From Pyropia yezoensis (lineage: Eukaryota > Rhodophyta > Bangiophyceae > Bangiales > Bangiaceae): a DNA stretch of 64,000 nucleotides. Shown here in pieces: positions 29,989-62,783 of the stretch; the stretch's first letter is position 1; each line of letters begins with the position of its first letter. The stretch is taken from NCBI GenBank assembly GCA_009829735.1, contig CM020620.1, forward strand, positions 10,785,420 through 10,849,419, in the 5' to 3' direction. The notes below the pieces were generated by a model. That model did not search any database. It saw only the letters and a list, made by a program, of their open reading frames with translations, and was not told the origin of the DNA. A program made the position numbers and the translations under genes.

Positions 29989-31905
29989 ATGGCGGGTGAG
30001 CCGAGTCGGCCTTTGTCCCCGTCTCCGACGTCTCTGTCGGACAAGCGACGGGCGGGAGAGGAGGCCCTCGGGACTGAGGAGTCTCTCAGCCGGGGGTCGG
30101 CCATGGAGACGACTCGTCCCGGGCGAGGGTCGGAGGCGGCCGCCTCAGCCGTCCCCGCTCCATCACCTCCTACTGCCCCCTCGGCTGTGGTCCCACCGGG
30201 GGATGGGTCTTCCAACCCGGTGGCGGAAGGGGATGTGACTCCCATCCCCCGCCTTCCTGAGTCGCGGCTGCTACTCCCGCCGCGGCCCCGTCCTCCTATG
30301 GGGCCCCGAGCCTGGGCGCCTCCCAAGTCAGTCGGGGAGCTTCCCGACTGCAAGCTCAAGGATGTCTATTTGATCATCCCCGAGCCACGGCGGACCGACG
30401 TATGGTACCGCCGGACTCGTCGGTACCCCAACCAGGTGACTCTACCTGATGGGGTGGTCTGCGACCTACCAGCGCTACTCTGCCTGGCGGACGCGCCTGA
30501 AGTCCAGGCGTTGTCAACCTCCCTCGCCATGGGGTCGGGCGACGTGGAGATCGACGACACCCACGCGGTGGTGTCTACCGAGTGGTGTGCCCTTCCTCGT
30601 CCCTACCTGGGCGGAGAGGACGCCCACGCCCAACACGGTGTGGTGCGAGAGGAGTTCCGACTCCGGGGCTCCTCGGGCTTCCTCATCCACGGGTCGCGGG
30701 TGGAGTTCACCCACGTACCTCTGGAGGAGCGTGAGCACCAGTACCCTCTTCTCCCAGGGTGGTGGGAGACAGTGGAGGTACCTTGCGGGTTTCCGGCTCG
30801 GATCCCCCTCCTCGTTGCCTACTTTGGCTCCGAGCTACGCTCCAGCTCGGAGGGCAACCGGGTCTTCGCCTACCTCGCCACGCACTGGGTGGTCGTGGTG
30901 GCTCGGGGCTGGTACTCCGATGTAGTCCATCGGGGTTACCTGTGGCACCTCCCACCGGCTCTGGTGGAGGGTATGGAAACCCTTGGCTTCCACTGGTTAG
31001 CCTTGGGCGCGGGGGACCTGGCTCCGTTCCTCCTCAAGGGTATGGTCACGCTGCACAATCGACTCGATTGGGCGCAGCTGGACCCTTTCCTCCGCCGCAA
31101 CAAGCGTTCAGAGCCGGGGTCGGAGAGTGAGCCACCCCGGGAGTTCGTCCATGTCACCCATACTCTGGTGCAGTGGCAGCTGCTCCTGCGTGAGGGGTTG
31201 GGGGACCCTTCCCTTCCCTACGCGGAGGGGGTTACTCCCTCTACGTCGCCCCCTGGCTCTGGGTGGGCGACGTCATCGGCGACGACTCGTCGTGGTGCTC
31301 ATCGAGGAGCCCCTCGAAGCCGCGGGCGAGCTGTGCCGACGTCTTCCCCGCGGGTCGCGACTCCGACCTCGGGGGGTGTGGAGCCGACTCAGGCTCCACC
31401 CTTCCAGTTCCTCGAACCCTTCCCCGACGTGGCGTTGGGTTCGCTACGGGTCCGAACTCCGGTCCCGATGCCGATTGCGCGTGGCGTCGGCGAGATGCTT
31501 CCCGACTTGGGAGCCATCATGTATGACGCCACGTTGGAGGCCTCACTCGTGGCCTCCCTTGACACGTTGGCTTGGGTCACCCGGCGTGTCAGTCACTTCC
31601 TCGCGTCGGGCGACTCAGCCACGGCGCGACAGTCATTGGCAGCTGAGGTCACTCGCCTCGCGGTTGGACACGAGTTTGTCCAACGGCTGCTGTCGACTCA
31701 GCAGCAGCTTCCGCGTCACGGAGGGAGTACCTCCGGACATCTTTCTTACGACGGGGATGGGTCCGCGAGTCGGCGGGCCCCTCCCAGTGCTTCCACTCCG
31801 GGGCCCTCCCGAGTGGGTTACGCCCCTCCGCTACCGGCCTACGACCCTGGGGGTTCGTGGTTGGGCGGTCCCTATAGTCGTGGGGGTGGGCATATGGAAC
31901 GCTAG
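29989..31905 (+). CDS. E1 antisense ORF (aORF), function unknown
   Basis: A 638-residue protein encoded on the strand opposite gag-pol, between pol and the polypurine tract. The first ~130 residues are Pro/Ser/Glu-rich and likely disordered. The middle (about 255-420) is globular and homologous to the aORF of E3: WWETVEVPCGFPA against WWPQVEVPYGFPA, LATHW against LATQW, and LLREGLGD...PYAEGV against LLREGLGI...PYAPGV. It is less similar to the E2 aORF (HRGYLWHLPPALVEG against RQGRLFHLPTGVRRH). The C-terminal ~240 residues contain a Ser/Thr/Pro linker, a predicted helical patch (VASLDTLAWVTRRVSHFLAS) and a Gly/Pro tail. I see no catalytic, zinc-binding or membrane motifs. Its 3' end lies 128 bp from the 3' end of pol, so transcripts would converge. 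Extra antisense ORFs are known in some plant Gypsy lineages, but I cannot assign a role here. Confidence 0.85.
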   Translation: MAGEPSRPLSPSPTSLSDKRRAGEEALGTEESLSRGSAMETTRPGRGSEAAASAVPAPSPPTAPSAVVPPGDGSSNPVAEGDVTPIPRLPESRLLLPPRPRPPMGPRAWAPPKSVGELPDCKLKDVYLIIPEPRRTDVWYRRTRRYPNQVTLPDGVVCDLPALLCLADAPEVQALSTSLAMGSGDVEIDDTHAVVSTEWCALPRPYLGGEDAHAQHGVVREEFRLRGSSGFLIHGSRVEFTHVPLEEREHQYPLLPGWWETVEVPCGFPARIPLLVAYFGSELRSSSEGNRVFAYLATHWVVVVARGWYSDVVHRGYLWHLPPALVEGMETLGFHWLALGAGDLAPFLLKGMVTLHNRLDWAQLDPFLRRNKRSEPGSESEPPREFVHVTHTLVQWQLLLREGLGDPSLPYAEGVTPSTSPPGSGWATSSATTRRGAHRGAPRSRGRAVPTSSPRVATPTSGGVEPTQAPPFQFLEPFPDVALGSLRVRTPVPMPIARGVGEMLPDLGAIMYDATLEASLVASLDTLAWVTRRVSHFLASGDSATARQSLAAEVTRLAVGHEFVQRLLSTQQQLPRHGGSTSGHLSYDGDGSASRRAPPSASTPGPSRVGYAPPLPAYDPGGSWLGGPYSRGGGHMER

Positions 31906-32033
31906 AGTCAGCGGTCGAGCGACTTGTTCTTTTCTTGGCGAGAAGAGTGGTGTGTGTTCATCTCGTTTTGTATTGTGCCATAGTCGGCTTTTTTAGTAGA
32001 GAATCATTGAAGAACCATGGTATGCGTTTGTAC

Positions 32034-34344
32034 TCATGGTTGGCTTGCCGCTCTGCTCTGACTTGGAGCAGGGACTTCATCCCCCGACGTACGAGTGCTA
32101 CGTCGGCGTATAGATATGCCCGCAGCCTGGCAGTATCTACGGACCTTCTCTACTGGTAGGTCCTCTACAAACTCCCATGTGTCGGAAGTTGGTCCATACC
32201 CGAACCACCTGACTCGGAGCATGAGTCGCCCCGACTCATCGTATCCGTGTCCGACAAACTTGTCGAACACCGCCTCCAACGGTTTATTGGAGGAGGTCGG
32301 CAAGGATGGGACTTTCCATGCTTGCAAGGCCCTTTCCCAAGCGGGATCTCCCTCTGGGGGTTCGGGTGCGCGAGTCGCGTGATTCCCATTTATCGTCCGG
32401 ATACCATCATCACTCTCGATGGTTAACCGCCGTCCATCCGTCTTAAGGATGTGATATGGTCCCAGAGTTTTGAAGACCAATTTCCCTCCCTTATTGTCGT
32501 GGGAGTTGACATAAATCCAATCTCCAACTCGGAGCGGATCGCGACGATGTCTGACTCGGACATCGAAGTACCTCTTGTAACGAGCTTGGGCCTTCTCCAT
32601 AGTAGCCCGGACAAGGGGTATCATCTCCTCCAGTCTCTGGAGTAGGGAGGCTTTCGCCTGACTCGGTGTTTGAGTCGAAGTCTCACCCACTGTCTGAGTG
32701 AGACGCTCCACAGCTACTGACGGAAGTCGTCGGGGGCAGACGAAGGCAAACGGTGCCTCTCCCGTACTACTGTGTACCTGGGAGTTGTATGCTGTCACGA
32801 GTAGTGACGCATAACGTGCCCATGTGACTACATGGTCATGGACATCGTGACGTAACTGGCGCACTAGAGTCCTGTTGAATCGTTCCACCTGCCCATTAGT
32901 CTGGGGGTGGTAAGGGGTGGCGAAGTTCGTCTGCACCCCCAACATCTTCATGACTCCCTGATACAGGACGGACGCAAACTGTGGTCCGTTATCCGAAAGG
33001 ATAGAGTCGGGGATGCCATAACTGGCAACCCAGACGTCGAGTAACTCACTCAGAACGTCCACGGCCGTGATATCCTTGAGTGGGGATACTCGTGTGAGCT
33101 TAGTAAAGCGATCACACATCACCAGAAGGTACTCATATCCTTCAGGTGTTCGTGGTAGTGGACCGAGTAAGTCCACTGCTATCGCTGCAAACGGCTCTGT
33201 TGCAGGAAAGAGTCTCATGGAAGAAGTCTGCCGGGACTCCATGAGTCTATTCTTTGCGCAAGTCGCGCATGCGGCTACATACCCGTACACATCAGCCACG
33301 AGTGATGGCCAATAGTACTTCTTGCGTAGGGTCTGATACATCCTCGTAGACCCTGGGTGTCCACCCAACGGTGAGGAGTGCTCCCGTTGGAGGATACTCT
33401 TTCGTAACTCCTTGGGGACGACGACTTCCTTGTCCCCCTGGGTATATCCCTTACGGCAGAGTATGCCGTTGTCATTCAGGAAGAACCGAGTCGGTTGAGC
33501 CTGGTCGAGCTCCTTCCTGAGTCGTCGACAAAGTTTGTCGCTCTCCTGTGCCTGGACAAACTCATCCAGAGACACGGGTAATAGCTTGGCCATGCCAGGC
33601 ACCCTCGGGTCGAGGACAGTTCCGGAGCGAGTGGTCACTGCCACATGAGGGAGCTCCTCAGGGATGGGGGAAGAGTCTTTCCCATCCGTCGGTATGCGAG
33701 ACAACGCGTCTGCAACCGCCTGCTTCGGGCCTGGCCGATATTCAACATCATAATCGAACTCAGCGAGGCAGAGTCGCCATCGATTGAGTCGGTTATTCGT
33801 ACAGGCTGTAGTGGGGAGTATCCACTTCAAAGCCTTGTGGTCACATCGAATGAGGAACTTCCTTCCTTCGATGTATGGCCGTAGCATGGAGACTGCCCAT
33901 ACTACGCCAAGGCCCTCTACCTCCGTCACAGAATAGTTCTTCTGGGCCGGTGAGAGTCCTTTGCTAAAATAGCCAACGGGTAAATACTCCCCCGAAGGCT
34001 GTTGTTGGAGTAAGCAACAACCAAGTTGGTCGTAACTTGCGTCCACATCAACGATGTAGTGAGCCCCCGGTCTGGGGATCGCTAACACCGGTGGGTTGCA
34101 GAGGAGTTCTCGCAACCTATCAAACGCTTCTTTCTCCGAGGGTTTGGGAGCATCCAAGCGCTTGGGCATCTTGGAACTTACCAAGTGGTTCAACGGTGCA
34201 GACACTTTGGCATAGTTCGCCACAAAGCGTCTGTATACGTTACACATACCCAGGAAGCTCCTGAGTTGTGTCTGCGTCTGGGGGAACTTCGCCCGACGGA
34301 TGGCCATGAGGTTCTTCTCATTGACCAGAATGCGACCTGGCCGG
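32034..34344 (-). CDS. pol: E1 pol, 3' part: RNase H, integrase, chromodomain
   Basis: Continuation of the E1 polyprotein after the E2 insertion; the frame is continuous with 45172 once E2 and one target duplication are set aside. The C-terminal connection of RT (TQTQLRSFLGMCNVYRRFV) comes first, followed by RNase H (YIVDVDASYD, EVEGLGVVWAV, ADALSR). The integrase has an HHCC zinc site (REHSSPLGGHPG ... CATCAKNR) and a DDE core (AVDLLGPL, SDNGPQF, the PYHPQTNGQVERFNR region). A GPY-like region and a C-terminal chromodomain-like stretch (VFDKFVGHGYDESGRLMLRV, WFGYGPTSDTWE) follow. A chromodomain usually directs integration to histone-marked chromatin. The open frame extends upstream into the E2 LTR (to 34451), but that part is not E1 sequence. 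Confidence 0.93.
34340..34344. repeat. E2 target-site duplication, left
   Basis: GCCGG, repeated at 45172-45176. Confidence 0.94.
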
Positions 34345-34709
34345 TGTAGCACAATAGGAATCCGTCGCACGTCCACTCTCAGGGAACACTCACCAAGGGG
34401 GATCGGCACCAACGTCACCGGGAGGCCAAGGTTGCTGTCCTTGGAGCGCAAGCCACGGGACCAAGATGGGAGCCCAAATGGGAGGGGTTTGTTGTTCTAC
34501 CTTGGCCGGCGGTGGATTCGCCACCGGCCCCCTCGTTATAAACCCTCGGAGACACTACTAACTACCCTCCACCCCAAGATGCAAGTCCCTCTGGTCATAC
34601 GTAACTTATAGATACCGTGACCAGTACGAACTATCAAATTGAAAGTTAAGGGTTAGAAGTAGCCCCCCCCTAATATTAGGGTCACAATACGGACAACCAT
34701 ATTGCTACA
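34345..34709 (-). repeat. E2 3' LTR
   Basis: 365 bp, starts TGTAGCACAATAGG and ends ATTGCTACA on the plus strand, essentially identical to 44809-45171. Confidence 0.95.
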
Positions 34710-34724
34710 TATCCCCCCCTTAGA
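34710..34724 (-). promoter_or_regulatory. E2 polypurine tract
   Basis: The minus strand reads TCTAAGGGGGGGATA directly ahead of the 3' LTR. Confidence 0.78.
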
Positions 34725-35296
34725 TTCGGCCCGTCCTCGGGTCGAGTTGCATTCGGGTTACCGAATGTAAGTGGGTCGCGTGACTGTTTACCCGTCGGGT
34801 GGGGCTTTGCGCCCCGTCGCGACAGACACCCTTTTTCGAGGTTGTCTCAGGGGGGTGCCCCCCTTTGCGTGGTACACACACACGATCCGTTTTCCGGACC
34901 GTTAAATTCCCGATGCGGGTTGCTGTTCACGCCCCCCCTTTCCGAGGGGTGGTGCAAGCGGATCCGCCACCAGGTGCCTGGTGGTAGGGGGGCCCCTCTC
35001 GTGTGGACGATTGAGTGGGGGGCGGGGGCTGCCCGCGTTGCGTGGGGGCGGTTGGGGGTGACCCCCCTTACTTACCCCGTGTGTGGGTGTGGCCCCGTCC
35101 CGCCCAGGTGCCTGGGTGGAGCGCGGTCGTAGCCCCGTGGGGCGCGGGTCGACCCGCGTGCCTGCGGCGCTTCTCGTGGCCGTTTGTGGTCATAAGCGCG
35201 GGTGTCCGCGCTTCCCTGGCTCGTCCCGGTTATCCCGCCGTACCGGGTTGTAGCCGTCGACGGCTTGTGGGCGCGGGGGACTCCGCACCCGTTATC
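34725..35296. other. E2 spacer upstream of aORF
   Basis: About 570 bp between the polypurine tract and the aORF start. The aORF frame stays open upstream to 35015, but the first ATG followed by protein-like sequence is at 35297. It probably contains an aORF promoter and leader. Confidence 0.5.
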
Positions 35297-37744
35297 ATGT
35301 CCTATCCCCAGGTGCTTGAAGAGGAGGAAGACCTCCTGATCGGGGAGGAGATGGAGGACGACGCGCCTGTCGGTCCCGACGCCGCGCGTTACGGGGTGAG
35401 CTCGTCTGACGACGACGGGCCTGCGGTGTCCGTCCGTCTGTCGGCCGGAGGACTGTCGTCCGTGTGCAGCGGCACGACGGTGCCGTCGGCCGGAGGTCAA
35501 CCCGGCGGTCAACCGCGCGTGGCGGCTTCTACCCCCTCTCTGCCGGCTGCCCGGATGGGGCCTGGTGCCGGTGCCGACTCACCGCAGGTACCTCAAGATG
35601 GTCCGCCCTGCGGCGGAGGTCGCGACCCGCAGCCGACTTCGGCTGGTCAAGGTGGTCCGGGTGTCCGGGCGGTGACTCCTCGAGGCGGTCCCGACGTTGA
35701 CGCGGGTGGTGGTGGCGGTGCGACACCCGGTGCGGCGGGTCAAGACGGTGCGGGTGTCCGCACGGCCGGGGCTCCGGCTCCGGAGGCTGTCCAAGTGCCT
35801 TCCCCTTCCGAGGCGGGGGCTACGCCGACGGAAGGTGCCGGCGCCGGTGCCGTACCTGCGGTGCCGCGGGCGTCGAGCGGTCAAGACGCTCCATCTCCCA
35901 TGGCGGTTGACACCGGGAGTTACTCCGGGCGGGCGCCCGCCCTTCTTCTTCCTCCGCGGCCTCGTCCATCTCCGACGTCGGCCCCTCTGCCGGTGGTGCG
36001 TCCCCCGGCGCCCCCGATTCTTCCTGGTCCTGCCCGGGTTGCCCCGTTGGGTGGCGGCGTCGCCGTGGCGGCGGGTCAACCCGCCATGTCGGTGTCCGAC
36101 TTGGTGGCTCGGGTTCGAGGCCTCACGGTGCAAGAGTCGATGGAGTCCGATGGGCGTATGCGGGTGGACTTCCACCTGGTGCATCCCCGTGGAGAATCCT
36201 CCCGGCGCGTCAAGGTGGACCCGTGCTGGGAGCGGGAGTTGGTGCGGCTGGTCAACCAGCCGAACGCGGTCCGGGTGGAACACCATTGGATCCTGAGTCA
36301 GCCGGACGACCGGCATGCGCAGCTCTGGCGCACCCGGGTGGGACGGGGTGAGGTCTACCTCGACCCCAACTTCGGGGTCTGCGACTTGATTGCCCCCGCG
36401 TTGCCGCGGGAGATTGACTACCCGGCTAGTGCTCGGGGGATTGCGGCGGCGGCGGAGCCGGTTGCGTTTGGGGAGACGGTGAGCCGTACCGGTCGGTATC
36501 CCGACTTTGACTACTACCCGGGGGAACCCCCGTATCTGTCGTTGACGGCTCCCTACCCGCCCATGGCGGGGTTGAAGTCGGCGTCGAGTTGGCGACGTAA
36601 CCATGGTGTCATGGCCGATGCGTTCCGCACGGATATAACGTGTGCGTTGCAGACCGGCAACGGTCGTGCTCCGGTATACACTCCCGTGCGCCCGCCGCTA
36701 TGGCAGGAGGGGTGGGAACCCGCCCCTGCTTTCCGGTTTGACACCGGCTCCTGCCTCCGATACTTCAAGAGTGTGTTGGCCTCCCGGCCGGTCCACCCGT
36801 TGCAGGGTACCTTCACCCTTGAGGTTACCCTCGGGCAGGCTTCATCCTTCTTGCTGTCCGTCCGCCGGCAGGGTCGTCTGTTTCATCTTCCGACGGGTGT
36901 CCGTCGGCACATCGCGCAGTTGGGCGTGGATCTGATAGCTGCCAAGACCGGGTTGGCCCGGGAGTTCGAAGCCCTGCTGGCTGTTCACGATGCCGTGAAC
37001 TGGGCTGGGGTGTTGGCCCTTCCCCCGTACCGGGACCCGCAGGCTGGGGCTTCCCCCTTGCCTCGTCACTCGTTGCGTGTCCGGCGTACTCAGCCGGGTG
37101 AGCCTAGTTGCCATGGGTGGGCGTCCACCGAGGCCGTTCCTGACCTGGGTATTCCCATGGTTATCCATGACCCTCTTCAGGTCCTTGCTCCGTGGTTCGG
37201 TAACCCGATGCCGGCGGCGGTTGGCCGTCGTCCCCGAGAGTGGGGCTCTGTGGGTGGGGAGCGTGAGGTGTCCCGTCGTCGGGCGGAGTACCGCCGTGGT
37301 TACGGTGGAGCCCCTTCGGTAGGGTCCTACCGGGCCTCGTATCAGGTGCCACCGGCTCCGGTGGTAGCCGTGTCGGCTCCTGTGGCTCCTCTGGCTGCGC
37401 CAGTGTCACCTCCCGCCCCTGTCCTACATGACGGGGGTCCCCGTCTCTGGTATGAAGGCGTTGACGCCCTTGTTACCCGCGCAATGCGTGGGGGTCTCTC
37501 TGTTAGCTGGGGGGATATCCCCCCAGGTGCTGCGCTGGTTGGGTCAGCGCGTTGCTTCGGTGGCGTGCTGGACCGCCTCCAGAAAGCTCTGGAGGACGTG
37601 GAGGCTGGCCGCAGCACCCTCGTCCAGCTATGCACCGAGGTAACTCGGGTGGTCGACCGTCGTGACGTTGCCGACCGGTGGAGCACGGAGGTCTACGCGC
37701 TTACGCGTGAGTGGCCTCCCTCGAGCAGTGGGTCTACCCACTGA
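35297..37744 (+). CDS. E2 antisense ORF (aORF), function unknown
   Basis: An 815-residue protein on the strand opposite gag-pol, starting MSYPQVLEEEEDLLIGEE. An upstream ATG at 35015 is possible but would add an Arg/Pro/Trp-rich extension without homology. Residues ~1-250 are acidic, Gly/Pro/Ser-rich and probably disordered. From ~270 to ~680 the protein is globular (for example RVEHHWILSQPDDRHAQLW). The segment around residue 520 (SVRRQGRLFHLPTGVRRHIA ... HDAVNWAGV) is alignable with the E1 aORF (HRGYLWHLP ... HNRLDWAQL). The C-terminus ends with a helix-rich part (CTEVTRVVDRRDVADRW), again echoing E1 (AAEVTRLAVG). No catalytic motif is recognised. The frame is fully intact in a very young element, which suggests that the protein is needed by, or tolerated in, the active family. 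Confidence 0.83.
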   Translation: MSYPQVLEEEEDLLIGEEMEDDAPVGPDAARYGVSSSDDDGPAVSVRLSAGGLSSVCSGTTVPSAGGQPGGQPRVAASTPSLPAARMGPGAGADSPQVPQDGPPCGGGRDPQPTSAGQGGPGVRAVTPRGGPDVDAGGGGGATPGAAGQDGAGVRTAGAPAPEAVQVPSPSEAGATPTEGAGAGAVPAVPRASSGQDAPSPMAVDTGSYSGRAPALLLPPRPRPSPTSAPLPVVRPPAPPILPGPARVAPLGGGVAVAAGQPAMSVSDLVARVRGLTVQESMESDGRMRVDFHLVHPRGESSRRVKVDPCWERELVRLVNQPNAVRVEHHWILSQPDDRHAQLWRTRVGRGEVYLDPNFGVCDLIAPALPREIDYPASARGIAAAAEPVAFGETVSRTGRYPDFDYYPGEPPYLSLTAPYPPMAGLKSASSWRRNHGVMADAFRTDITCALQTGNGRAPVYTPVRPPLWQEGWEPAPAFRFDTGSCLRYFKSVLASRPVHPLQGTFTLEVTLGQASSFLLSVRRQGRLFHLPTGVRRHIAQLGVDLIAAKTGLAREFEALLAVHDAVNWAGVLALPPYRDPQAGASPLPRHSLRVRRTQPGEPSCHGWASTEAVPDLGIPMVIHDPLQVLAPWFGNPMPAAVGRRPREWGSVGGEREVSRRRAEYRRGYGGAPSVGSYRASYQVPPAPVVAVSAPVAPLAAPVSPPAPVLHDGGPRLWYEGVDALVTRAMRGGLSVSWGDIPPGAALVGSARCFGGVLDRLQKALEDVEAGRSTLVQLCTEVTRVVDRRDVADRWSTEVYALTREWPPSSSGSTH

Positions 37745-38057
37745 GGAGTGCTATTGTTTGTGCGGGAGAGGGCCCCGGCAACCCTTATGGTAGCCGGGTA
37801 GTAGTGAGTATAAACTCATCCCCCGCTGGGGGCATTGCTTGCCTCTGTTTGCTGCCCTGGGGAGTACCCCTTCTGGCTCAGTGGTGCCTTGCCTCCCGCC
37901 CAACTTCTTCCGGTTGGTTCATGCTTGGGGAGGTTATCCTCCCTCACTTTGTGTCTTGGCTTGGGGAGGTCATCCTCCCGCGTAAGCTCCCTAGTTACTT
38001 CGATATTATCGGAGTTAGCCTTTACCTTTAAGTTAACTTATTAAGGTTCAGGTTTTT

Positions 38058-38153
38058 ACTTAGTTACCTAAGCTTAGCTCTACTTAGTTACCTAAGCTTG
38101 GTTCGACTTGGAAACCTAAGTCTGATTTGACTTAGAAACCTAAGTCTGCCGTA
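38058..38153. repeat. four 24-bp hairpin-forming tandem units between aORF and pol of E2
   Basis: Units start at 38058, 38082, 38106 and 38130. Units one and two begin ACTTAGTTACCTAAG; the third and fourth read ACTTGGAAACCTAAG and ACTTAGAAACCTAAG. In each, CTTAG/CTTGG can pair with the downstream CTAAG. The array sits in the 480-bp gap where the aORF and pol transcripts converge, a suitable place for termination or polyadenylation signals. That role is an inference. Confidence 0.85.
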
Positions 38154-38224
38154 ACCATGTCACACCCTACTTAGTAGGTATAAGCCTCACCCCCCAACAG
38201 CCGAAGTCGGTGTCGGTTGGGTTG

Positions 38225-41200
38225 TTACAGTAGGCGTCGTCGCCTCATGTAAGGCATGAGTAGTTGGCGGGGTATATTTGCCGCCTGTTCCCAGGTGGGT
38301 GAGTCGTATCCGACCCACATAACCTTGACGTACCAGGGTCCTGGTAGGTCCGGGTCGGTGTGTCCGACCACGCTCTCTACTTGGTATGGAATCCCATCCG
38401 GTCCCACCGGGTCATCTGACCGGTGGGTTGTAAGAGCTTCATGTAGCAACCCAGCCGGTACCGGCTGAGGCTGTTCCGGCATCGGAGCAGGTGTGACGTC
38501 ATTCATGCTGATGCGTTGAATCTCCGTACCGGAGTGTAAGATAACAGAGTGGTTATCTCTGTGGAGGATCTGGTACGGTCCCTTGACCGGTTGCATAAGC
38601 TTGTTCCCTCGGAACTTCTGGTGTCTGATATAGACCCAGTCACCTGTTACCAGGGTTGCGTTGCGCACCCGTAGTCGGGCGTCGAAGTTCTTCTTATACC
38701 GAAGTTGTGTTCTGTCAAGGGCACCCTTGAGCTTAGGAATCATCCACGATAGCTTGGCCAACCAAGCTAGGTGGATGCGTTCGGCGGGTCGGCCCTTCGG
38801 TGTATCATACCGAGTGCACCTGCCGGGTGGCAGCGTCAGGTTACCGACGCCTAGTGGCATGACCCACTCCAGCGGAGCGATGTTGGTACTCCGATGCGGC
38901 CTGGCATTGTATGCCAGGGTGAGTACGGACAGAAGCCTGTCCCAAGTGTTCGTGTGCTCTGCCACGTAGCACTGTAGCATCTTGACGATGGTGCGGTTGA
39001 ACCGCTCCACCTGCCCGTTGGACTGCGGGTGGTAGTCGGATGCCCGACGTGGTTCGATACCGAACATGCCCAGGACCTTAGTGCAGAATGCCGACGTAAG
39101 GTTTGCTCCGTTATCGGAGGGGAGTTGCTTCATGACTCCGTATGCACCGATCCAGTGGTCAACCACTGCGTTCATAATCGTGTATGCCGTATCATTCGGG
39201 ATGGCTGCCGCTCGTGACAGCTTGGTGAATCGGTCAGACATGACCAGGATGTACCTGTTCCCTTCTTCCGTTACCGGAAGTGGCCCGAGTATGTCGATAG
39301 CGACTTGCTCGTTGGGCCCATCGGGTGGGAATAGCTTCATGGCAGACGCCTGCCTATGTAGACTCATGCGGTTACGCGCACAGGGGTGGCATCCCCTTAC
39401 GTGGTCGACCACGTCGACGGCCATTGCTGGCCAGTAGAAGAACCTTCGCATTGCTGCGAGCATACGTGAACCCCCCGGGTGTCCGGCTGTAGGGTTCTCA
39501 TGTTCTCGTTCCATGACGGCTTGCCGTAAGGACACGGGAACCACGACTTGATGTCGTCCATCGGCGGGTGCCCGCCGGTATATGAGTCCGTCTTCGTTCT
39601 CGGAGAAGATGCCGGCCGTACCGGCCAGGAGGTTAGCACGATGACGTCTACAGTCATCGTCGTTGGCCTGTGCCTCGCGGAAGTCCGCGAGGGTCAATGG
39701 GCACGCAAGGTGTGCCATGGTATGGTCAGCCATACCCTGGGTAGCATTACCCACCATGCACACCGGTACCACCGGGATGTCCTCGTCCACCGGGCGGGTA
39801 TCCCCGCTCGGGGTGTCGAGTCGAGACAACGCGTCTCCGAGGTGGTGGGTTGACCCAGCCTTATACACCGTGCGGTAGTCGTGCTCGGCCATCTTCAGCC
39901 TCCATCGGGCTAGCCTCCCATGGCTATCGGAATCCTTGTCACCAAGGTTGAGGAGCCATCGTAGGGGTTCGTGGTCGGACCTCACGATGAACCTGGAGCC
40001 CTCCAGGTATGGACGGAGCAGTTGCACTGCCCATATAACTCCGAGGCATTCACGCTCGGTGGCACTATAGTTCCGCTCAGCCGGGTTGAGTGTCCGGCTG
40101 AAGTACCCTACCGGACGTAGGTCCGGGATAACGTTATCGGTACCGATCAACGTCTCTCCCTGTAACAGGGTGCATCCCACTTGTGTATCACACGCATCGA
40201 CATCGATGACGAAGGTACCCCGTCTATGCGGTAACGCAAGGACGGGTGGGGCTAGTAGGGCTCGCTTCAGCGACTCGAATGCCTCCTCTTCGCTAGGCGA
40301 AGGGGGTTGGAGTACCTTGGGTAAGGTACTGCTCGTAAGAACCGTTAACGGTTTAGCTATCCGAGCGAAGTCCTTGACGAACCGTCGGTATACATTGCAC
40401 ATTCCCAGGAAGCTCTTGAGCTGCGTCTGGGTGTTAGGGAACCGGGCATCCCGGAGTGCCCGGGTATTGGCTTCGAGTACCCCTAGTTTACCAGGGGTTA
40501 TCTGGTGGCCCAGATATTCGACCGTCTGTTGGAAGAAGGCGCACTTCTTCAGACGCAGGGTTACCCCGGCGTTCCTCAAGAGGGTGAGTACCTCGTCAAC
40601 ATGTTGTACATGGTCATCCATGTTACGCGAGAAGACGATGACGTCATCGAGGTACACTAGGCAGTTACGCCACTTCACCCCAGACAGTATGATGTCGATA
40701 GCCCGCTGGAATGTAGCGGGGGCGTTGGACAATCCGAAGGGCATCCTTAGGAACTCGTACACTCCACTGTGACAGACGAATGCCGTCTTGGGGATATCCT
40801 CGTCCGCCACCGGGATCTGCCAGTATCCGGCATTGCAGTCGATGGTGGTAAACACCGTAGCCTCCCCCAGGGAGTCGATGCATTCATCCATCCTTGGTAA
40901 AGGGTATGAGTCCTTCTTGGTAACCAAGTTGAGGCGTCGATAATCGATGCAAAACCGAGGGGTTTGATCCTTCTTCGGCACAATAACGACTGGGGCACCC
41001 CGTTCCGACATCGAAGGTCGGATCACCTTAGCTTCACTCATCCTCTTCACTTCTCCATCAACGATCTCTCGTTGCATAGGTCCCGCTCGGTGCGGTTGTG
41101 AGCGGGCGGGTCGTGCGCCTGGTACCAGGTCTATACGATGTTGGGTTGCCCCAATGGTCCCCAAGGCCCCGCCTGTCCACATAACGTCATGCTTTCTTAG

Positions 41201-41719
41201 CATCCGTCGTACCCCTTCGGCTACCGAAGGGGGAAGGTGGTCGAGGTCAGCCTCGGCCAGTGCCTTCAAGGCCTCTTGGTCCTTTGGCGGCAGGTCCGCC
41301 GGAGCCGCCGATGGGTTAGGCTTCCCGTCATCGGGTTGCTGTCGCTCGGTGGTCTCGGCGACCGCCAGTACTTCAAGTGGTTCCACTTGACCTTCCTTAT
41401 CAGGGGTAAGGATATCTCCTTCGTAGAGTTCGGCAATCCCGAGGATAGTTCCCTTCGGGAGGGTGACTGCCTTACGGCGGTAGTTCGCCATCACTAGGAG
41501 GGACGACCCTCCTGCTGGGAGGTCTATGAGACCGTTGGCCATGGTCAACCCATGGCGCTTGTACGTCCGCAGGTTGGACCGGACTCTGCAGATGCCTGCG
41601 AGGTCGCAGTTAACCGGGAGGACTGTCTCTGACAACGGCTCAAAGCGAGTTCGCTTGGCCAACCGAAGTGTCTTCGGCTCGACGCTTGCGTACACCTCAG
41701 CCACGTTAACGTGGCTTCC
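38225..41719 (-). CDS. pol: E2 pol: reverse transcriptase, RNase H, integrase, chromodomain
   Basis: Long intact frame directly following an in-frame TAA after the protease. The RT contains FCIDYRRLN, FTTIDCNAGYWQIPV and the catalytic YLDD (about residue 350, counting from 41704). RNase H follows (VIDVDACD near 498, ATERECLGVIW, LGDALSRLD). The integrase has an HHCC site (EHENPTAGHPGG ... CHPCARN near 735), a DDE core (AIDILGPLPV near 800, SDNGANLTSAF) and the YHPQSNGQVERFNR region. A GPY-like motif (KGPYQILHR) follows, and the last ~55 residues form a chromodomain-like fold (YQVESVVGH ... WYVKVMWVGYDSPTWE). There is no ATG at the frame start, so translation must come through readthrough of the TAA at 41720-41722, or the element carries a recent nonsense mutation. 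No other break is visible. Confidence 0.93.
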   Translation of the reverse strand, partial: GSHVNVAEVYASVEPKTLRLAKRTRFEPLSETVLPVNCDLAGICRVRSNLRTYKRHGLTMANGLIDLPAGGSSLLVMANYRRKAVTLPKGTILGIAELYEGDILTPDKEGQVEPLEVLAVAETTERQQPDDGKPNPSAAPADLPPKDQEALKALAEADLDHLPPSVAEGVRRMLRKHDVMWTGGALGTIGATQHRIDLVPGARPARSQPHRAGPMQREIVDGEVKRMSEAKVIRPSMSERGAPVVIVPKKDQTPRFCIDYRRLNLVTKKDSYPLPRMDECIDSLGEATVFTTIDCNAGYWQIPVADEDIPKTAFVCHSGVYEFLRMPFGLSNAPATFQRAIDIILSGVKWRNCLVYLDDVIVFSRNMDDHVQHVDEVLTLLRNAGVTLRLKKCAFFQQTVEYLGHQITPGKLGVLEANTRALRDARFPNTQTQLKSFLGMCNVYRRFVKDFARIAKPLTVLTSSTLPKVLQPPSPSEEEAFESLKRALLAPPVLALPHRRGTFVIDVDACDTQVGCTLLQGETLIGTDNVIPDLRPVGYFSRTLNPAERNYSATERECLGVIWAVQLLRPYLEGSRFIVRSDHEPLRWLLNLGDKDSDSHGRLARWRLKMAEHDYRTVYKAGSTHHLGDALSRLDTPSGDTRPVDEDIPVVPVCMVGNATQGMADHTMAHLACPLTLADFREAQANDDDCRRHRANLLAGTAGIFSENEDGLIYRRAPADGRHQVVVPVSLRQAVMEREHENPTAGHPGGSRMLAAMRRFFYWPAMAVDVVDHVRGCHPCARNRMSLHRQASAMKLFPPDGPNEQVAIDILGPLPVTEEGNRYILVMSDRFTKLSRAAAIPNDTAYTIMNAVVDHWIGAYGVMKQLPSDNGANLTSAFCTKVLGMFGIEPRRASDYHPQSNGQVERFNRTIVKMLQCYVAEHTNTWDRLLSVLTLAYNARPHRSTNIAPLEWVMPLGVGNLTLPPGRCTRYDTPKGRPAERIHLAWLAKLSWMIPKLKGALDRTQLRYKKNFDARLRVRNATLVTGDWVYIRHQKFRGNKLMQPVKGPYQILHRDNHSVILHSGTEIQRISMNDVTPAPMPEQPQPVPAGLLHEALTTHRSDDPVGPDGIPYQVESVVGHTDPDLPGPWYVKVMWVGYDSPTWEQAANIPRQLLMPYMRRRRLL

Positions 41720-41722
41720 TTA
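41699..41722 (-). promoter_or_regulatory. possible stop-codon readthrough site between E2 protease and RT
   Basis: On the minus strand, TAA (41722-41720) is followed after GGA by AGCCACGTTAACGTGGCT (41716-41699), a perfect 18-nt palindrome able to fold into a hairpin. Protease and RT are in the same frame on either side. This resembles stop codon plus downstream structure readthrough signals in retroelements, but could be a chance mutation. Confidence 0.4.
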
Positions 41723-42412
41723 TAGCGTCAGGTCCCTGACGATAGCCGTGTGTCCTCGCTTCGTCCCGTCGGCTTCTTGAAGCTCGACGGTCCTCCGGCC
41801 TGGCCGGATTGCATCAACGTGAACGTTGATGAAGGTGCACCCCAGTATGCAGGGCACCGATAGCGTTTCACATACCAGGAAGTCAACTTCCGTGGTGAGA
41901 TCCCCGATGGTAACCTGCAGCGACATCGCTGCGGTCGTACGAATGAGTCGACCATTCGCGTCCTTGATGGTGGGTCCCCGAGTCACTCTGACTCGTGGAA
42001 GCCACTTGTCCGGGAGGGTATCCTTCCGGATAAGGTTGGGTCCAGCCCCTGTGTCCAGTACAGGGTAGTACGATCGTGTCGACTGGGGGTCAACCCCCAG
42101 GGTGGCTGATACCTTGAAGTTCTCCAAGGTAAACAACACATGTCCTACACCGATATCCGGTGTAGCTCGGGCATCCTGAACAGGACCCTTGTCTGGTTCA
42201 ACGTGACGGGGCTTCCCGTCCTCTCCTCCCAACCTTGGAGGTTGGTCATCAATCCCCTGACGCCGTGTCGTCGGGGCCGGAAGGTGTACCCGGGGGTTGA
42301 TGCGGCGTCGGCTCAACCGCGCTCTCCGTGGGGCTTTCCCCGCGGTACTCCGGGGTGGCTTGCTTGGGTGACCCCAGCGCCCCCCGGTCATCCTTCCTCT
42401 TACTCGTTTCCC
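41720..42412 (-). CDS. pro: E2 protease (Pro), -1 frame relative to gag
   Basis: Aspartic protease domain: VLDTGAGPNLIRKDTLP is the catalytic D-T/S-G region and VPCILGCTFIN the downstream hydrophobic-Gly motif of retropepsins. The frame is -1 with respect to gag and is open from the heptamer GGGAAAC at 42412-42406, just before the gag stop at 42402-42400, so it is probably translated by -1 frameshifting and not from the ATG at 42391. It ends at a TAA at 41722-41720, in the same frame as the following RT. Confidence 0.9.
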   Translation of the reverse strand, partial: GKRVRGRMTGGRWGHPSKPPRSTAGKAPRRARLSRRRINPRVHLPAPTTRRQGIDDQPPRLGGEDGKPRHVEPDKGPVQDARATPDIGVGHVLFTLENFKVSATLGVDPQSTRSYYPVLDTGAGPNLIRKDTLPDKWLPRVRVTRGPTIKDANGRLIRTTAAMSLQVTIGDLTTEVDFLVCETLSVPCILGCTFINVHVDAIRPGRRTVELQEADGTKRGHTAIVRDLTL

Positions 42413-45171: not shown

Positions 45172-45176
45172 GCCGG
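45172..45176. repeat. E2 target-site duplication, right
   Basis: GCCGG, matching 34340-34344. Both copies lie within the E1 pol coding sequence. Confidence 0.94.
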
Positions 45177-53898: not shown

Positions 53899-53931
<33 letters not shown>

Positions 53932-57900: not shown

Positions 57901-59918
57901 ATGATGGGGCCTCCCCTCCCCGGCGCGGGCAGCCAGCACCCCCCCCGACCGACCCTACGGACATTCCGTCGCGGACGCCCTTGGCGGGCACGCCCGGCGG
58001 CATTGCGGCCTGCCGGCAGGCCACCGAACCCCAGCGGCACGTCCGCCCAACCCGCCCCTCCCTCCGCTCGGCATATCCATCCCGCTCATCCTCTCCCTCG
58101 TCGTTCAACGCCCCCCCTTGCCCGTTTGGACCTGCCTCCAGGTGGAGTGCCAGGCGCCGGTGAGGCTCCCGGCCTGGCAAAAGCCACTCCAGGCGCGAAC
58201 CCTGATGGGAAGGCAGCCCACGGCTTCGGCGACCGCTCTACGTTTACCTCCCGTGAGTGCGGGGCCTGGGCCTCACCCACGGGGGGGGGTACGTTTGCAT
58301 CGCCCATCCAGGACCGTATGGCTACGGATGACTAGAGGCGCCCCTTTGGGGGGCGTACCTGCTGTGGGGGGGTCGTCCTCCACGGTTATGGAGACGGTTC
58401 CTCTGGCGGCTTTCCGCCAGATGTTGACTGAGGTGGTGTCACCAATTTCTGCTCGACTCGAAAAGGTCGAGGGTTCAATCTCTCGATCTGGTCGGCGGAC
58501 TCGCCGCCGACCCCACGGTCATTCGCAGACCTCTTCCTCTTCAGAGGCAAGTGATCTCGATCCTGAGAGGCGTGGGGCGAGGCGCTTAAGCGCTTCGACC
58601 CACCGCCGGGTGGCCCGAGTGCTATGCTGCGGACGTGACGGGGAACCGGAGCGGGTTATCCCGCTCAAGATAATACCCGATGATGATACCTTTAAAGGCA
58701 TCCTAGATTGCGAGTCTTATGCACTCGCCAACAAGAGCGTACGCTATGATGATGAGATGGCTCACGGCTTAGGCCGGAAGCGCAAAGAGATATCCCTCAC
58801 GTTTGGGCGTGACGCCCTCTGGGACGGGACCCCCCCTCTGGGGGTGTTCGAATTCCTAAATCGCTTCCGTGAGGCTAGCGATGACAACGACCTCTCAGAA
58901 GGTCGGGCTATGTACCTCCTTCCGGAGTTTACTAAAGGGAAACTTAAGAAGGAGCTCCACTTCTTTATCCCCTCTAAGGCGGGGGGACGAGCGGGAGAGG
59001 TCACGTCGTACTTGGAGCCGGATAACTAGCTCCTCCGCAGTTATGCGGGTGAGGAAATAATATCATCCCAAGAGGCAGCGTTTAACAACGTTGCCCAACA
59101 AGAGGACGAAATTGAGGGCGCCTTTTACCGTCGCGTCCGCGACGCAAATGCGCTCCGCGGGTATATACATACTGCAAGCCAGCTTAAGGGCCGCTTTATG
59201 CAAGGGGTCTGGTGGGAGGTACGGACTGATGTCCGTGAATTTAATACACCAGACACGCCTTTAGAGGCGTTCTTACGATATGCTCAGCGCAAAGGCGACA
59301 TATGTCGCCGGCGCAAGGAAGAGCTGCGGGCCCAATGGTCCGCAGACGCCGCAGAGCCTCGGGTTCGGCGCAATGTCTCTACAGGCATTGCCGCGGGGGT
59401 GGCTACTACCCCCAGCGGATCGTCCGTACCGTCCTTGTACGGGGGGAAGGCCAAATTTGGCTCTGAAGTGAAGTCCCCGACTGATAAACCGGGGAGGGAG
59501 CGTTTAAACCGCTACCCCTGCTTGGCTTGTAATAGCCATGAGCATTTTACGCGCCACAGTCCCGACCTTAGTGTCGAGACGCGGGCCAAGTTTGAGAAAG
59601 CTCGTAAGGAGCGCGCACGAGTTGAGGGCCGTATTCCGCGGAGTACGGCGATGACAGCGCAGCCCTTAGCGGTTGACACTGAGGGGGGGCCCTCTGGCGC
59701 CCCTGAAGGGGGTCCTGGCCCCCAGGGGAATACCGAAACCGATGGGGTGACCCTGTGGCGCGACGCTAAGTTGTGGGACATCACCCTCTCACAATACGTA
59801 TCCGTCGCAGAGACTGAACGGGAGTGGGCTCGGGTCGACCGCCAGCCAGCGTTCGTCCTGGGGCTTAAGATGCAGTCCGGGCCTCAGGGATGGAAAAAAA
59901 CACCTGGGGAACTACCAG

Positions 59919-60022: not shown

Positions 60023-61040
60023 AGAAGACCCTTGTTGAGCTTGACTCTAGTCCGATCTTGTGAGATGAGTTGGGAGGTGTCGTCTAAGAGGGAGGGGCAA
60101 CTCGACCGTGAAATGCCTCTACTCCCAAGCTTGTTTTACACACTCCGGCGAGCAGGCATGGGTGGTAACACCCTTTTTCTAGGATTAACACCTCTTCGGG
60201 GGTGGACCTGCGCGGAGGAGATTGTCAGGTGGGGAGTTTGGCTGGGGCGGCACATTTGTTAAAAGATAACGCAGGTGTCCAAAGAAGAGCTTAGCGAGAA
60301 CAGAAAGCTCACGTAGAACAAAATGGTAAAAGCTCATTTGATTTTGATTTTCAGTACGAATACAAACTGTGAAAGCATGGCCTATCGATCCTTTTGACCT
60401 TCAAGGTTTGAAGCAAGAGGTGTCAGAAAAGTTAACACGCGTTGCGGTAGCTTTTAAGAGTGGACTCAAAGTGTTCCGCTAGTCCCCCCTCGGACCGCCA
60501 CTTACAAAAAGCCTTGGGATGGGGCGACGCTGTCAAATTGCGGGGAGAGCGCCGCGAGGGTCGGCGACGACGGCGAGGAGGCGAGTATGCCCGGCTCGCA
60601 CGACGTTTGCCACGCCCAAGTGGGGCTGGCTGGGGCATAATAGCCCCGATGCGAGCCAACTCGGCCGTCATAAACCCCGCCACCGACTCGCAACTCGCGG
60701 TCGCCACCGCAGTACGAACACGGTCCTCAAGTTTGTAGCATCCCTGGCCCCGACTTGGCGCCGACCCGGGACTACAACCAGAGGGCACCAGGTGCCAGAA
60801 CACGCCCGCCGTGTGCTGATGGTTGGCGGCCGTGGCCCGTGCCCGGCACTGGAATGCGGTGGACTACGCTATCCACACGTGAGAGAGGGATTTCTGATGG
60901 GTTTTTGCATACTTGTGAGGGACTTGATTTGAGAGAATTTGAGTGTGAGATTAGTGAGTGGGAATAGAATTCGTAGTGATAGTGGCCCCCGACCTGACGA
61001 GGTTAGACTCGGGTCGGGGCCACTCGGGGGTATGGGGGGG
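60023..61040. other. E3 interior without recognisable pol; hairpin
   Basis: I find no RT, RNase H or integrase motif in any frame, so pol has been deleted or replaced. At 60981-61024 a long hairpin (AGTGGCCCCCGACC with GGTCGGGGCCACT, one bulged C) lies 17 bp beyond the aORF stop. Confidence 0.55.
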
Positions 61041-62783
61041 CTACCTGGCCAACGTGCCGAGGCTCTCCCTGATGCACGTTAAGAGGGACAGCGAGGCGCC
61101 CTTGGCCCGCGCCCTCAGGAAAAAGACAACTGCGCGTTTGCTTTCCTCTTCCCCGTGTGCACTACCGTGCGTATCTGTTTGCTCTGCGAGCAGGCACGTG
61201 AGGCAACAGGCATACCACTCTCGTAGTTCCCCTTTCTGTGTTACCTGTCCCTTTCCCCCGAGGGATATTGACACGTGTCTGAGAGGATCGAGTTTTATAC
61301 CACAAAGTTGAGGAGTCTCGGAAGTTTGAAGGGTTGCGGTCGACGCGGCCAACCAAGAAATGGTGCGCACCAACGTGGTGATCATCATCTCTGAGGTTAG
61401 AGGCGCGGGCGGCAGCACCAACTTGGGGTATACCGTCAGGAGGGTGGCCCCCAAGTTGGGGGACACCGGGGTGGACGACTCAACGGCTACGCTAACCGGG
61501 ATGTCCCCGTGTGGCTGGTAGGGGACAGGAGGAAGTGGAGGGGCACGCCGAGGTGGCGGTGCCCGGGTGTAAATGCGACCCCGACTTGGGGCCCCCGCAG
61601 TGGGTTGAGTCATACGGTCATCATGTGAGGGCACGGCCATAACTATGGCCTTGTCCGGGGGTGGCGCAGTGTGGCGATCCACTCCCGGGGCATACGGGTA
61701 GTCCCCGATGCCCAACCCCTCTCGTAGGACCACACGGCCGTCGTGAAGTTCACGAGCGACCCATACGAACTGGCGAAGTGCGCCATCGTCCTTGGGCCCA
61801 CGAGTGGGGCGGCGCAACTTGTGCTCGATGCTCTCCCACTCGATAAACTTGTGGAGGCGGAGCATCTCCTCAAGTAGAGTGAGTTGTCCTGATGAGCACC
61901 CCTCAGCAACTAGCTGAGGGGTGAGCTGTTCCAAACCTTGGATAAGCCGGAGGAGGAGATGCCGGAGCATCCCCCGCCGCTGAACACAAGACACCCAGGT
62001 CGACATGACCTCAAGGAGCCACTGGGTAGCCAACATGGCCCACACCAGATGATCCGGGCTAGCCGTCAACATGACGGAGCCGAAGTGGTCAAGCAACCGT
62101 GGCAGCAACGCCGGGAACCCATACGGGACCTCAACTTGAGGCCACCACTCGGGCTTCTTCGGATAGTACTGCTCCTTACTGGCAGCAGACTGCTGAGGAA
62201 ACTCAAGTTGAGCCGAGGTCACCAAGTAGGGACCTCGCCGGAAGTCCTTCTCCATCCGCACATCAAAGTGATGAGTGTGCGGATCGGCCTCATGAAGGTA
62301 CGGGGGGCGAGCTGCCACCGCGTCCCAAGTAAAAATCGGCAAGTCGCCGGGACCCGGGATAGTTCCCCCGCGGTCCACCATGGCCTTGGCCCGCTGTACG
62401 TCTTCGACTTCCTCATCCTCCATGATGGCAAACTGGTCCGTCCTGAAGCCGGCCGGGAATCCGGCCCTACGGGGATACTTCTCCCGTAGGCGGTCCCATG
62501 CCCGACCCATCGCTGGGCCAAGTCGGCCACAGCGAAAAACAGTCAACCCCTCCTCATACAGAGGCCAAGCGGGGTAGAACCACCGCCCCAAGGCCTCGCG
62601 CGGGACAACTTGTCCCGCCTCCGGGGGAGATCCCGCCGTCAACCCAAAGCCGGGTGACGCGGGAGTCCCATCCCCCGGAGCGATCGCGGAGCCCCCGCCG
62701 GAAGTCCCGGCGGGCGCTGCACCGTAGGAGGTGTCCTCCATACGTTCATCGAGAGAGTCCGTCTCCACCCCCGGGGTCGCCAT
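61041..62783 (-). CDS. E3 antisense ORF (aORF), function unknown
   Basis: 580 residues from an ATG in a good context (GAGAGCCATGGCG; the frame is open to 62954 upstream). The N-terminal ~80 residues are acidic and Gly/Pro-rich. The globular middle (~210-370) is homologous to the E1 aORF: WWPQVEVPYGFPALLPRLLD, AMLATQWLLEVMSTWV, RRGMLRHLL, MLRLHKFIEWESIEHKLRR and VVLREGLGIGDYPYAPGVD have direct counterparts in the same order. The C-terminal part after a Pro-rich linker has a helical stretch (MMITTLVRTISWLAASTA), as in E1, then a tail that looks unconserved. The frame has no stop although gag of the same element is broken and pol is gone, which is notable. No enzymatic motif recognised. Confidence 0.8.
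   Translation of the reverse strand: MATPGVETDSLDERMEDTSYGAAPAGTSGGGSAIAPGDGTPASPGFGLTAGSPPEAGQVVPREALGRWFYPAWPLYEEGLTVFRCGRLGPAMGRAWDRLREKYPRRAGFPAGFRTDQFAIMEDEEVEDVQRAKAMVDRGGTIPGPGDLPIFTWDAVAARPPYLHEADPHTHHFDVRMEKDFRRGPYLVTSAQLEFPQQSAASKEQYYPKKPEWWPQVEVPYGFPALLPRLLDHFGSVMLTASPDHLVWAMLATQWLLEVMSTWVSCVQRRGMLRHLLLRLIQGLEQLTPQLVAEGCSSGQLTLLEEMLRLHKFIEWESIEHKLRRPTRGPKDDGALRQFVWVARELHDGRVVLREGLGIGDYPYAPGVDRHTAPPPDKAIVMAVPSHDDRMTQPTAGAPSRGRIYTRAPPPRRAPPLPPVPYQPHGDIPVSVAVESSTPVSPNLGATLLTVYPKLVLPPAPLTSEMMITTLVRTISWLAASTATLQTSETPQLCGIKLDPLRHVSISLGGKGQVTQKGELREWYACCLTCLLAEQTDTHGSAHGEEESKRAVVFFLRARAKGASLSLLTCIRESLGTLAR

What the first reader, a model, noticed from the sequence alone, without database searches (positions are those of the whole stretch)
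29989..62783. A homologous antisense protein-coding ORF in three Gypsy elements
E1 (29989-31905, +), E2 (35297-37744, +) and E3 (62783-61041, -) each carry a long extra ORF between pol and the polypurine tract, on the strand opposite gag. The E1 and E3 proteins share an ordered series of motifs over ~160 residues (WWxxVEVPxGFPA, LATxW, LLREGLG...PYAxGV). E2 shares a shorter part (RxGxLxHLP ... NWA). Gag sequences of the three differ strongly and position, orientation and layout are conserved, so this is a real module of the family and not a captured gene. In E3 the ORF is open although gag is broken and pol is lost. Antisense extra ORFs are known in some plant Gypsy lineages; I know of no description of this protein. 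Roles could include silencing suppression, packaging or an envelope-like/movement function, but nothing in the sequence decides this.
Basis: partly seen in the sequence, partly recalled or inferred. Interest (0 to 1): 0.88.

Follow-up and report, generated by a model that had tools for sequence, protein, structure and literature searches.

The report
Antisense accessory gene in algal retrotransposons
Several families of retrotransposons in a red alga carry the same unrecognised protein gene, written backwards behind their usual genes and, where it could be measured, kept intact by natural selection, so these elements seem to need a protein whose role is still unknown.

Summary
Confirmed and extended, with one correction. 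Gypsy elements E1 and E2 and the remnant E3 carry, between pol and the 3' LTR and antisense to gag-pol, ORFs of one protein family (E1 versus an E3-family copy 36% over 287 aa, 1e-43; E2 versus the same copy 1e-9). A fourth family, E4, met only because its solo LTR lies inside E3, has a homologous antisense ORF in the same place. The ORF is protein-coding: two E3-family copies differ by 58 synonymous and 6 nonsynonymous changes (pN/pS 0.04), as strict as pol. E1 and E2 are also clearly below 1; E4 is uninformative. Correction: E3's ORF is not intact. Related copies have an Arg/Ser-rich tail there. The host is a Bangiales red alga; the named homologs are all Pyropia vietnamensis. No Pfam family passes its cut-off and no PDB match is convincing. 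Antisense accessory ORFs are known in plant and fungal Gypsy elements; this is a different family in a new host group. Most likely role: a nucleic-acid-binding accessory protein.

The parts
28442..49514 (-). Gypsy element E1 (gag-pol on the - strand), interrupted by E2
   Evidence: LTR pair 28441-28980 / 48974-49514, 98.9%; TSD CTCGC, TG...CA ends
28442..28982 (-). E1 3' LTR
   Evidence: inner end approximate
29435..29950 (+). E1 non-coding stretch between 3' LTR and aORF with four GGGTYGTRTCCCCCCC motifs (29435, 29768, 29864, 29934)
   Evidence: 3-5 motifs by a relaxed pattern in each of 8 E1 copies, the window's included
29989..31905 (+). E1 antisense ORF (aORF), 638 aa: low-complexity N-terminus with LLLPPRPRP, W/P/G-rich core about 130-420, Pro/Arg-rich linker, C-terminal conserved segment about 500-570
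   Evidence: 69 loci scored in the genome, a lower bound
32034..34344 (-). E1 pol, 3' part: RNase H, integrase, weak chromodomain match; its stop lies 128 bp from the aORF stop (convergent genes)
   Evidence: the ORF runs on into E2's LTR at 34345
45172..46906 (-). E1 pol, 5' part with reverse transcriptase
46894..48678 (-). E1 gag with a zinc-knuckle match just under the Pfam cut-off
   Evidence: PF00098, E 0.0007, 20.0 of 20.8 bits
34345..45171 (-). Gypsy element E2, nested in E1 pol
   Evidence: LTRs 34345-34709 / 44809-45171, 99.5%; TSD GCCGG
35297..37744 (+). E2 aORF, 815 aa
   Evidence: 55 best copies listed in the genome, 53 without stops
38225..41719 (-). E2 pol (RT, RNase H, integrase); stop 480 bp from the aORF stop
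42400..44595 (-). E2 gag
   Evidence: 24% to E1 gag, 7e-14; no Pfam match
61305..62783 (-). E3 aORF, residues 1-493 (the genuine part of the reported ORF)
   Evidence: compared without gaps to 29 other family loci
60734..61304 (.). 571-bp solo LTR of a further Gypsy family (E4) inserted in the E3 aORF, TSD AACTT; it supplies the last 87 codons of the reported ORF
   Evidence: 40 copies listed in the genome, this one included, several pairs about 9.08 kb apart
60543..60732 (-). E3 aORF continued after the solo LTR; homology to the family ends at about 60543
58652..59659 (+). gag fragment, assigned to E3 by position and orientation (inference)
   Evidence: tblastn with E1 gag, 37%, 2e-57
63120..63590 (+). 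E3 3' LTR
   Evidence: PPT-like GAGGAGAGGGGAG before TGTGGCAG

Best explanation
A conserved accessory gene of a group of red-algal Gypsy retrotransposons. Shown: at least four families carry a homologous ORF between pol and the 3' LTR, on the opposite strand, convergent with pol; in three of them (E1, E2, E3 family) purifying selection has acted on the protein while copies multiplied, so the protein, not only an RNA, matters to the element. Inferred: it is made from its own antisense mRNA, started in or just inside the 3' LTR and ending between the two stop codons; it is a soluble protein that binds nucleic acid, probably in the nucleus, through its Arg-rich linker and, in the E3 family, an Arg/Ser-rich tail; it helps the element at a step such as transcription, RNA export or protection, or return of the DNA copy to the nucleus.
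For: Homology and fixed layout in four families. Selection: E3 family L013 vs L017 58 syn / 6 nonsyn, pN/pS 0.04; E1 vs L041 (90% DNA identity) 112/75, pN/pS 0.25, with 0 stops against 5.3 expected; E2 vs L043 and L044 (73-74% DNA identity) 0.38 and 0.37, with 3 stops each against 7.1 and 7.8 expected; 0 of 1000 context-matched permutations reached the observed value in each of these four. aORF pN/pS 0.03-0.27 in 28 pairs of 8 E3-family copies; pol tail 0.02-0.31 in the 15 pairs that align in frame. Rows without stops in the lists of best matches: 59 of 70, 73 of 76, the interrupted window copy counted as open, 53 of 55, 48 of 63; such lists favour intact copies. Nucleic-acid-binding idea: net +10 and +6 in residues 521-560 and 561-600 of an E3-family copy, with RRRRRHSRRSP; Arg-rich linkers in E1 and E2; no 19-residue hydropathy above 1.4 and no N-glycosylation motif in three proteins.
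Against: No transcript, localisation or binding data. The strongly basic tail is in the E3 family only; net charge of E1, E2 and E4 is -5, -3 and -3. E4 copies (3 compared) show pN/pS 0.8-2.1 from 10-14 changes per pair, so no sign of selection there. Close E1 pairs scatter from 0 to 2.3.
Confidence: 0.5

Rival explanations
1. Anti-silencing factor: the protein binds repeated non-coding motifs in its own element and removes silencing marks, as VANC proteins of Arabidopsis VANDAL elements do.
For: E1 has 3-5 GGGTYGTRTCCCCCCC-like motifs in the non-coding stretch beside the gene in each of 8 copies. The aORF diverges about as fast as gag between E1 and E2 (both 24%). VANC targets are tandem repeats in non-coding regions (abstract of PMC10398659).
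Against: No CpG loss in the parts of E1, E2 and E3 measured (CpG o/e 0.68-0.98, nowhere more than 0.03 below GpC o/e); 68 of 244 differences between copies touch a CpG; so no clear footprint of long-term cytosine methylation, although the copies are young. The strict motif occurs in the window only in E1. Homology to VANC was not tested.
Confidence: 0.2
2. Particle protein: an extra structural or packaging protein of the virus-like particle.
For: Arg-rich low-complexity segments could bind RNA; selection is as strong as on pol in the E3 family.
Against: No similarity to gag of the same elements (hhalign E 0.7 and 0.35) and no zinc knuckle. Supply from a separate antisense mRNA would be unusual for a particle protein.
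Confidence: 0.15
3. Envelope-like or movement protein.
For: Position between pol and the 3' LTR is where env lies.
Against: Wrong strand; no hydrophobic N-terminus, no transmembrane-like stretch (highest 19-residue hydropathy 1.2-1.4), no N-glycosylation motif in the three proteins examined, E1, E2 and an E3-family copy. No dedicated signal-peptide predictor was run.
Confidence: 0.04
4. The antisense RNA matters and the ORF is incidental.
For: Antisense RNAs are discussed as regulators of other LTR elements (review PMC7264820).
Against: Codon-specific constraint: pN/pS is below 0.45 in this frame in all 10 comparisons and 0.66-11 in four other frames; the fifth, a mirror frame that shares third positions, gives 0.18-0.52 and is higher than the aORF frame in each pair. 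Changes to stops are fewer than expected in the comparisons where more than 3 were expected.
Confidence: 0.02
5. A host gene captured by one element and spread to others.
For: No other origin is visible; the outside relatives found are unnamed or 'hypothetical' proteins.
Against: Four deeply diverged families (integrase tail 33-62% identical) share it in the same place; E1 and E3 are closest in both pol and aORF. The genome lists, capped at about 55 to 76 best matches, were not checked for a single-copy host relative, so one is not excluded.
Confidence: 0.09

Closest known systems
[quoted passage not shown]
   Same: Same position and orientation, present in most copies, conserved, function unknown; Grande's protein is nuclear and has its own promoter (review PMC7264820, parts 1 and 2 of 3 read; the Grande paper itself is not held)
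   Different: TRP28 (PF04195) was not found in any protein scanned. Direct comparison with Grande or RIRE2 proteins was not possible. Retand elements are non-chromovirus elements of flowering plants (PMC11963269, passages); these are elements of a red alga with chromodomain-like pol ends in some families
Boty / BcGypsy1 brtn of Botrytis
   Same: An antisense extra gene in a fungal Gypsy element (named in PMC7264820, and in passages and the reference list of PMC8365987)
   Different: Protein sequence not available here, so homology is untested
Plant mobile domain (PMD, PF10536) ORFs of plant Gypsy elements
   Same: An extra domain carried by Gypsy elements (passages of PMC9289625 and PMC5418596)
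   Different: No PMD match in any protein scanned
VANC anti-silencing proteins of VANDAL DNA transposons
   Same: Element-encoded extra protein with repeated non-coding motifs nearby (abstract of PMC10398659)
   Different: That VANDALs are DNA transposons is recalled; homology untested; no methylation footprint seen
HBZ / APH-2 antisense genes of HTLV
   Same: Antisense gene of a retroelement with a nuclear product (background passages of PMC11963269; the antisense promoter inside HTLV's 3' LTR is in PMC7264820)
   Different: No sequence relation was looked for

Membership tests
Antisense aORF class (aORF-3R) of LTR retrotransposons | ORF between pol and 3' LTR, antisense to gag-pol | tested here: met
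   E1, E2, E3-family copies, one E4 copy
Antisense aORF class (aORF-3R) of LTR retrotransposons | present and conserved in most copies of the family | tested here: met
   many copies of each (lists of best candidates, so copies without the ORF could not appear); pN/pS
Antisense aORF class (aORF-3R) of LTR retrotransposons | transcribed from its own promoter (known for Grande) | not testable with these tools
   no RNA data
Retand lineage (TRP28) | Transposase_28 domain PF04195 in the antisense ORF | tested here: not met
   hmmscan of 15 E1/E3-type and 5 E2-type proteins (E up to 10) and 1 E4 protein (E up to 1): none. None in the genome, but the control rang only in E. coli, below the cut-off, so that part is weak
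Retand lineage (TRP28) | non-chromovirus pol | tested here: inconclusive
   chromodomain match after integrase in E1 (17.3 bits) and E4 (20.8 bits), both under Pfam's cut-off of 25.1; none in E2
Plant mobile domain ORFs | PF10536 | tested here: not met
   no match in the proteins scanned; the whole-genome search also found none, but no control genome rang
Envelope-like ORFs | sense orientation, hydrophobic signal and transmembrane segments | tested here: not met
   antisense; hydropathy and glycosylation scan of three proteins
Gag-like / second capsid | similarity to gag, zinc knuckle | tested here: not met
VANC-type anti-silencing factor | sequence-specific binding to repeated non-coding motifs and loss of silencing marks | not testable with these tools
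   motif repeats seen in E1 only; no CpG decay

The most novel reading that the evidence does not exclude
These elements are ambisense by rule: a group of red-algal Gypsy elements, with integrase tails only 33-62% identical between families, all depend on one fast-evolving antisense-coded protein of a fold not yet seen, acquired once in a common ancestor and separately from the antisense genes of plant and fungal elements. If so, antisense accessory genes arose repeatedly and meet a general need of Gypsy replication.
Probability: 0.35. Interest if true: 0.8.

Novelty: new variant of a known kind. Interest (0 to 1): 0.6.

Why it matters
Antisense extra genes in plant and fungal retrotransposons have been reported for years without a settled function (review PMC7264820). 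Here is one in a red alga, in at least four families with many young copies, under selection as strict as that on pol in the family where both were measured, and without a TRP28 or PMD match. That makes it a good place to ask what such genes do, and it argues that they are not a quirk of flowering plants. It also matters for annotation: relatives from Pyropia vietnamensis are deposited simply as 'hypothetical protein'.

Tried and rejected
Rejected: chance ORF, antisense RNA alone, envelope-like protein, duplicated gag, TRP28 and PMD membership.

Led nowhere: a viral-contig scan with the E1/E3 profile found 21 pattern matches, none a relative. PDB searches with E1 alone and with A1 gave nothing; A2 gave two weak matches (E 0.13 and 0.47), which I take as noise. 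E2-type proteins have a sub-threshold DUF6214 match (2 of 5, best E 0.014); not pursued. An element at 21191-26579 with E3-type LTRs has no Pfam domain in the four ORFs scanned inside it (which also scanned two ORFs outside). Other red algae could not be searched by DNA. E2-E4 homology fails when compared directly (605 of 1000 shuffles; hhalign E 0.07); the two are linked only through E3.

Discarded numbers: (loci not yet turned to one strand; replaced). In one search the pol-tail values of the 13 pairs with L011 or L026 (0.52-0.93) were left out of my range. One search shows why: L011 has a one-base gap against the others in this stretch, and the first 119 bases of L026's stretch do not align. 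One search used 8 of the 30 E3-family loci held; one search used the 8 E1 loci held, out of 69 scored.
Full report
WHAT THE WINDOW IS. The window lies in a 107.5-Mb genome in 11 contigs, three of them 29-44 Mb. The named outside relatives of the proteins are all from Pyropia vietnamensis; one unnamed relative (source 'ena') is 98% identical to E1's. It is a Bangiales red alga, most likely Neopyropia (Pyropia) yezoensis; the species name rests on my recall of its genome size and three chromosomes, not on a tool.

ANATOMY. E1 (28442-49514) and E2 (34345-45171) are Gypsy elements with both LTRs and with gag and pol on the minus strand; E2 sits inside E1's pol, and each has a 5-bp target duplication. 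In both, the extra ORF lies between the pol stop and the 3' LTR on the plus strand, so it converges with pol: stop codons are 128 bp apart in E1 and 480 bp in E2. E3 is a remnant: 3' LTR 63120-63590, aORF residues 1-493, a gag fragment at 58652-59659 and no pol match. In a relative of E3 (L014) the layout of this end is visible: LTR, about 340 bp, a 647-aa ORF, then the end of pol (integrase and chromodomain-like tail) on the other strand.

A CORRECTION. The reported E3 ORF (61041-62783) is partly an accident. After residue 493 a 571-bp solo LTR is inserted (60734-61304, TGTGG...CTACA, target duplication AACTT). It happens to extend the frame by 87 codons. The three relatives translated continue instead into a basic, Arg/Ser-rich tail. 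So E3 cannot be used to argue that the aORF outlives gag and pol.

A FOURTH FAMILY. The solo LTR led to its own family, here E4 (40 LTR copies listed, several pairs about 9.08 kb apart). One copy, read as two stretches, has gag and pol on one strand and, on the other, an ORF that ends 145 bp from the pol stop. Taking the start at L047:197 (my choice; an in-frame ATG also lies at L047:5, in the LTR), it has 705 codons and begins about 185 bp from the LTR. Its product is homologous to the others: blastp to the E3 window protein 2e-6 as a pair, hhalign to the E1/E3 profile 7e-7, 0 of 1000 shuffles against an E3-family protein, 1 of 1000 against E1, but 605 of 1000 against E2. I looked at this family to see whether a Gypsy element picked for another reason would have the gene; it did.

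HOMOLOGY AND AGE. Integrase-tail identities are E1-E3 62%, E3-E4 45%, E1-E4 44%, E2-E4 37%, E1-E2 33% and E2-E3 33%. The aORF identities are 36% for E1-E3 and 24-25% for E1-E4, E3-E4, E2-E3 and E1-E2; E2-E4 gives only a 28-residue match. E1 and E3 are the closest pair in both genes; the deeper order is not resolved by the aORF. For E1-E2, aORF and gag are both 24% identical while pol is 41%, so the aORF changes about as fast as gag.

SELECTION. Eight E1 copies: pooled pairwise dN/dS 0.33 over 28 pairs. E1 versus a 90%-identical relative: 112 synonymous and 75 nonsynonymous differences, no stops where 5.3 are expected. E3-family pair L013/L017: 58 and 6. Over 28 pairs of 8 E3-family copies the aORF gives 0.03-0.27, and the pol tail 0.02-0.31 in the 15 pairs that align in frame. 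E2 versus two 73-74%-identical relatives, which carry stops and are decaying: 0.38 and 0.37. In the ten comparisons, context-matched permutations reached the observed nonsynonymous share in at most 2 of 1000; other frames gave 0.66-11, except the mirror frame that shares third positions (0.18-0.52, always higher than the aORF frame). Three E4 copies gave 0.8-2.1 from 10-14 changes per pair, too few to show selection.

THE PROTEIN. Across families: a low-complexity start, acidic in E2 and E3, with a LLLPPxPR-like motif (E1, E2, E4); a core with the motifs WWxxVEVPxGFPA and LATxW (E1, E3), RGxLWHLP and LHxxxxW (E1-E3, with changes), of which E4 keeps VEIPVGF and LWFLP; a Pro/Arg-rich linker; and a C-terminal segment with an AExTR-like motif. 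No transmembrane-like stretch or N-glycosylation motif in the three proteins examined. No Pfam match in 15 E1/E3-type members or in E4, and only a sub-threshold DUF6214 match in 2 of 5 E2-type members; no convincing PDB match. Relatives in the 5.8-billion-protein collection: 13 for the E1/E3 profile and 4 for E2, of which six bear a name, all Pyropia vietnamensis 'hypothetical protein'. That search needs shared short words and scored about 8,000 candidates, so distant relatives could be missed.

MECHANISM. A gene kept under protein-level selection on the strand opposite gag-pol needs its own mRNA. The room for a promoter is the 3' LTR plus a non-coding stretch of about 0.2 kb (E4), 0.34 kb (E3 family), 0.6 kb (E2) or 1.0 kb (E1). 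Basic linkers and the Arg/Ser tail suggest nucleic-acid binding. I take a nuclear accessory factor as most likely (0.5), an anti-silencing factor next (0.2), then a particle protein (0.15). None has direct evidence.

COMPARISON. A review (PMC7264820, parts 1 and 2 of 3 read) describes antisense aORFs in Grande, RIRE2, Retand, PvRetro13 and fungal Boty, function unknown, Grande's nuclear with its own promoter. A 2025 survey (PMC11963269, passages including the abstract) finds TRP28 in antisense ORFs of 97% of Retand clusters, in flowering plants only. The present family shares position and orientation with these, not that domain. My searches of the held open-access library listed no paper on such a gene in red algae (seen as listings, 12 of 19 papers and 12 of 1,378); most subscription papers are not held.

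Noticed in passing
window 60734-61304: Solo LTR (571 bp, TSD AACTT) of a high-copy Gypsy family, here called E4, about 9.6 kb long, inserted in the E3 aORF.
   Followed up: yes
window 29435-29950: Four GGGTYGTRTCCCCCCC motifs in E1 between LTR and aORF; on the genomic-RNA strand these are G7-9 runs that resemble E2's polypurine tract (TATCCCCCCCTTAGA in the 29440s is shared with E2 at its LTR edge near 34710). Extra polypurine tracts, promoter parts or protein-binding sites are all possible.
   Followed up: partly
window 21191-26579: LTR pair (93% identical) closely related to E3's LTR around about 4.6 kb without a Pfam domain in four ORFs scanned: probably a non-autonomous relative. A 560-bp stretch inside it (22425-22985) recurs inverted, 99% identical, just outside (26576-27135).
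   Followed up: partly
window 8893-16690 and 51733-55099: Very GC-rich (up to 86%) stretches with long overlapping ORFs in many frames, about 95% identical to each other in part (for example 11319-12722 and 53673-55099).
   Followed up: no
L043, L044: E2-like copies at 73-74% DNA identity with stops in the aORF: probably an older, decaying sister group of E2.
   Followed up: partly
G000 C2:9880067-9892399: Four E2-type aORF matches spaced exactly 3,489 bp apart, as if part of the element were tandemly amplified.
   Followed up: no
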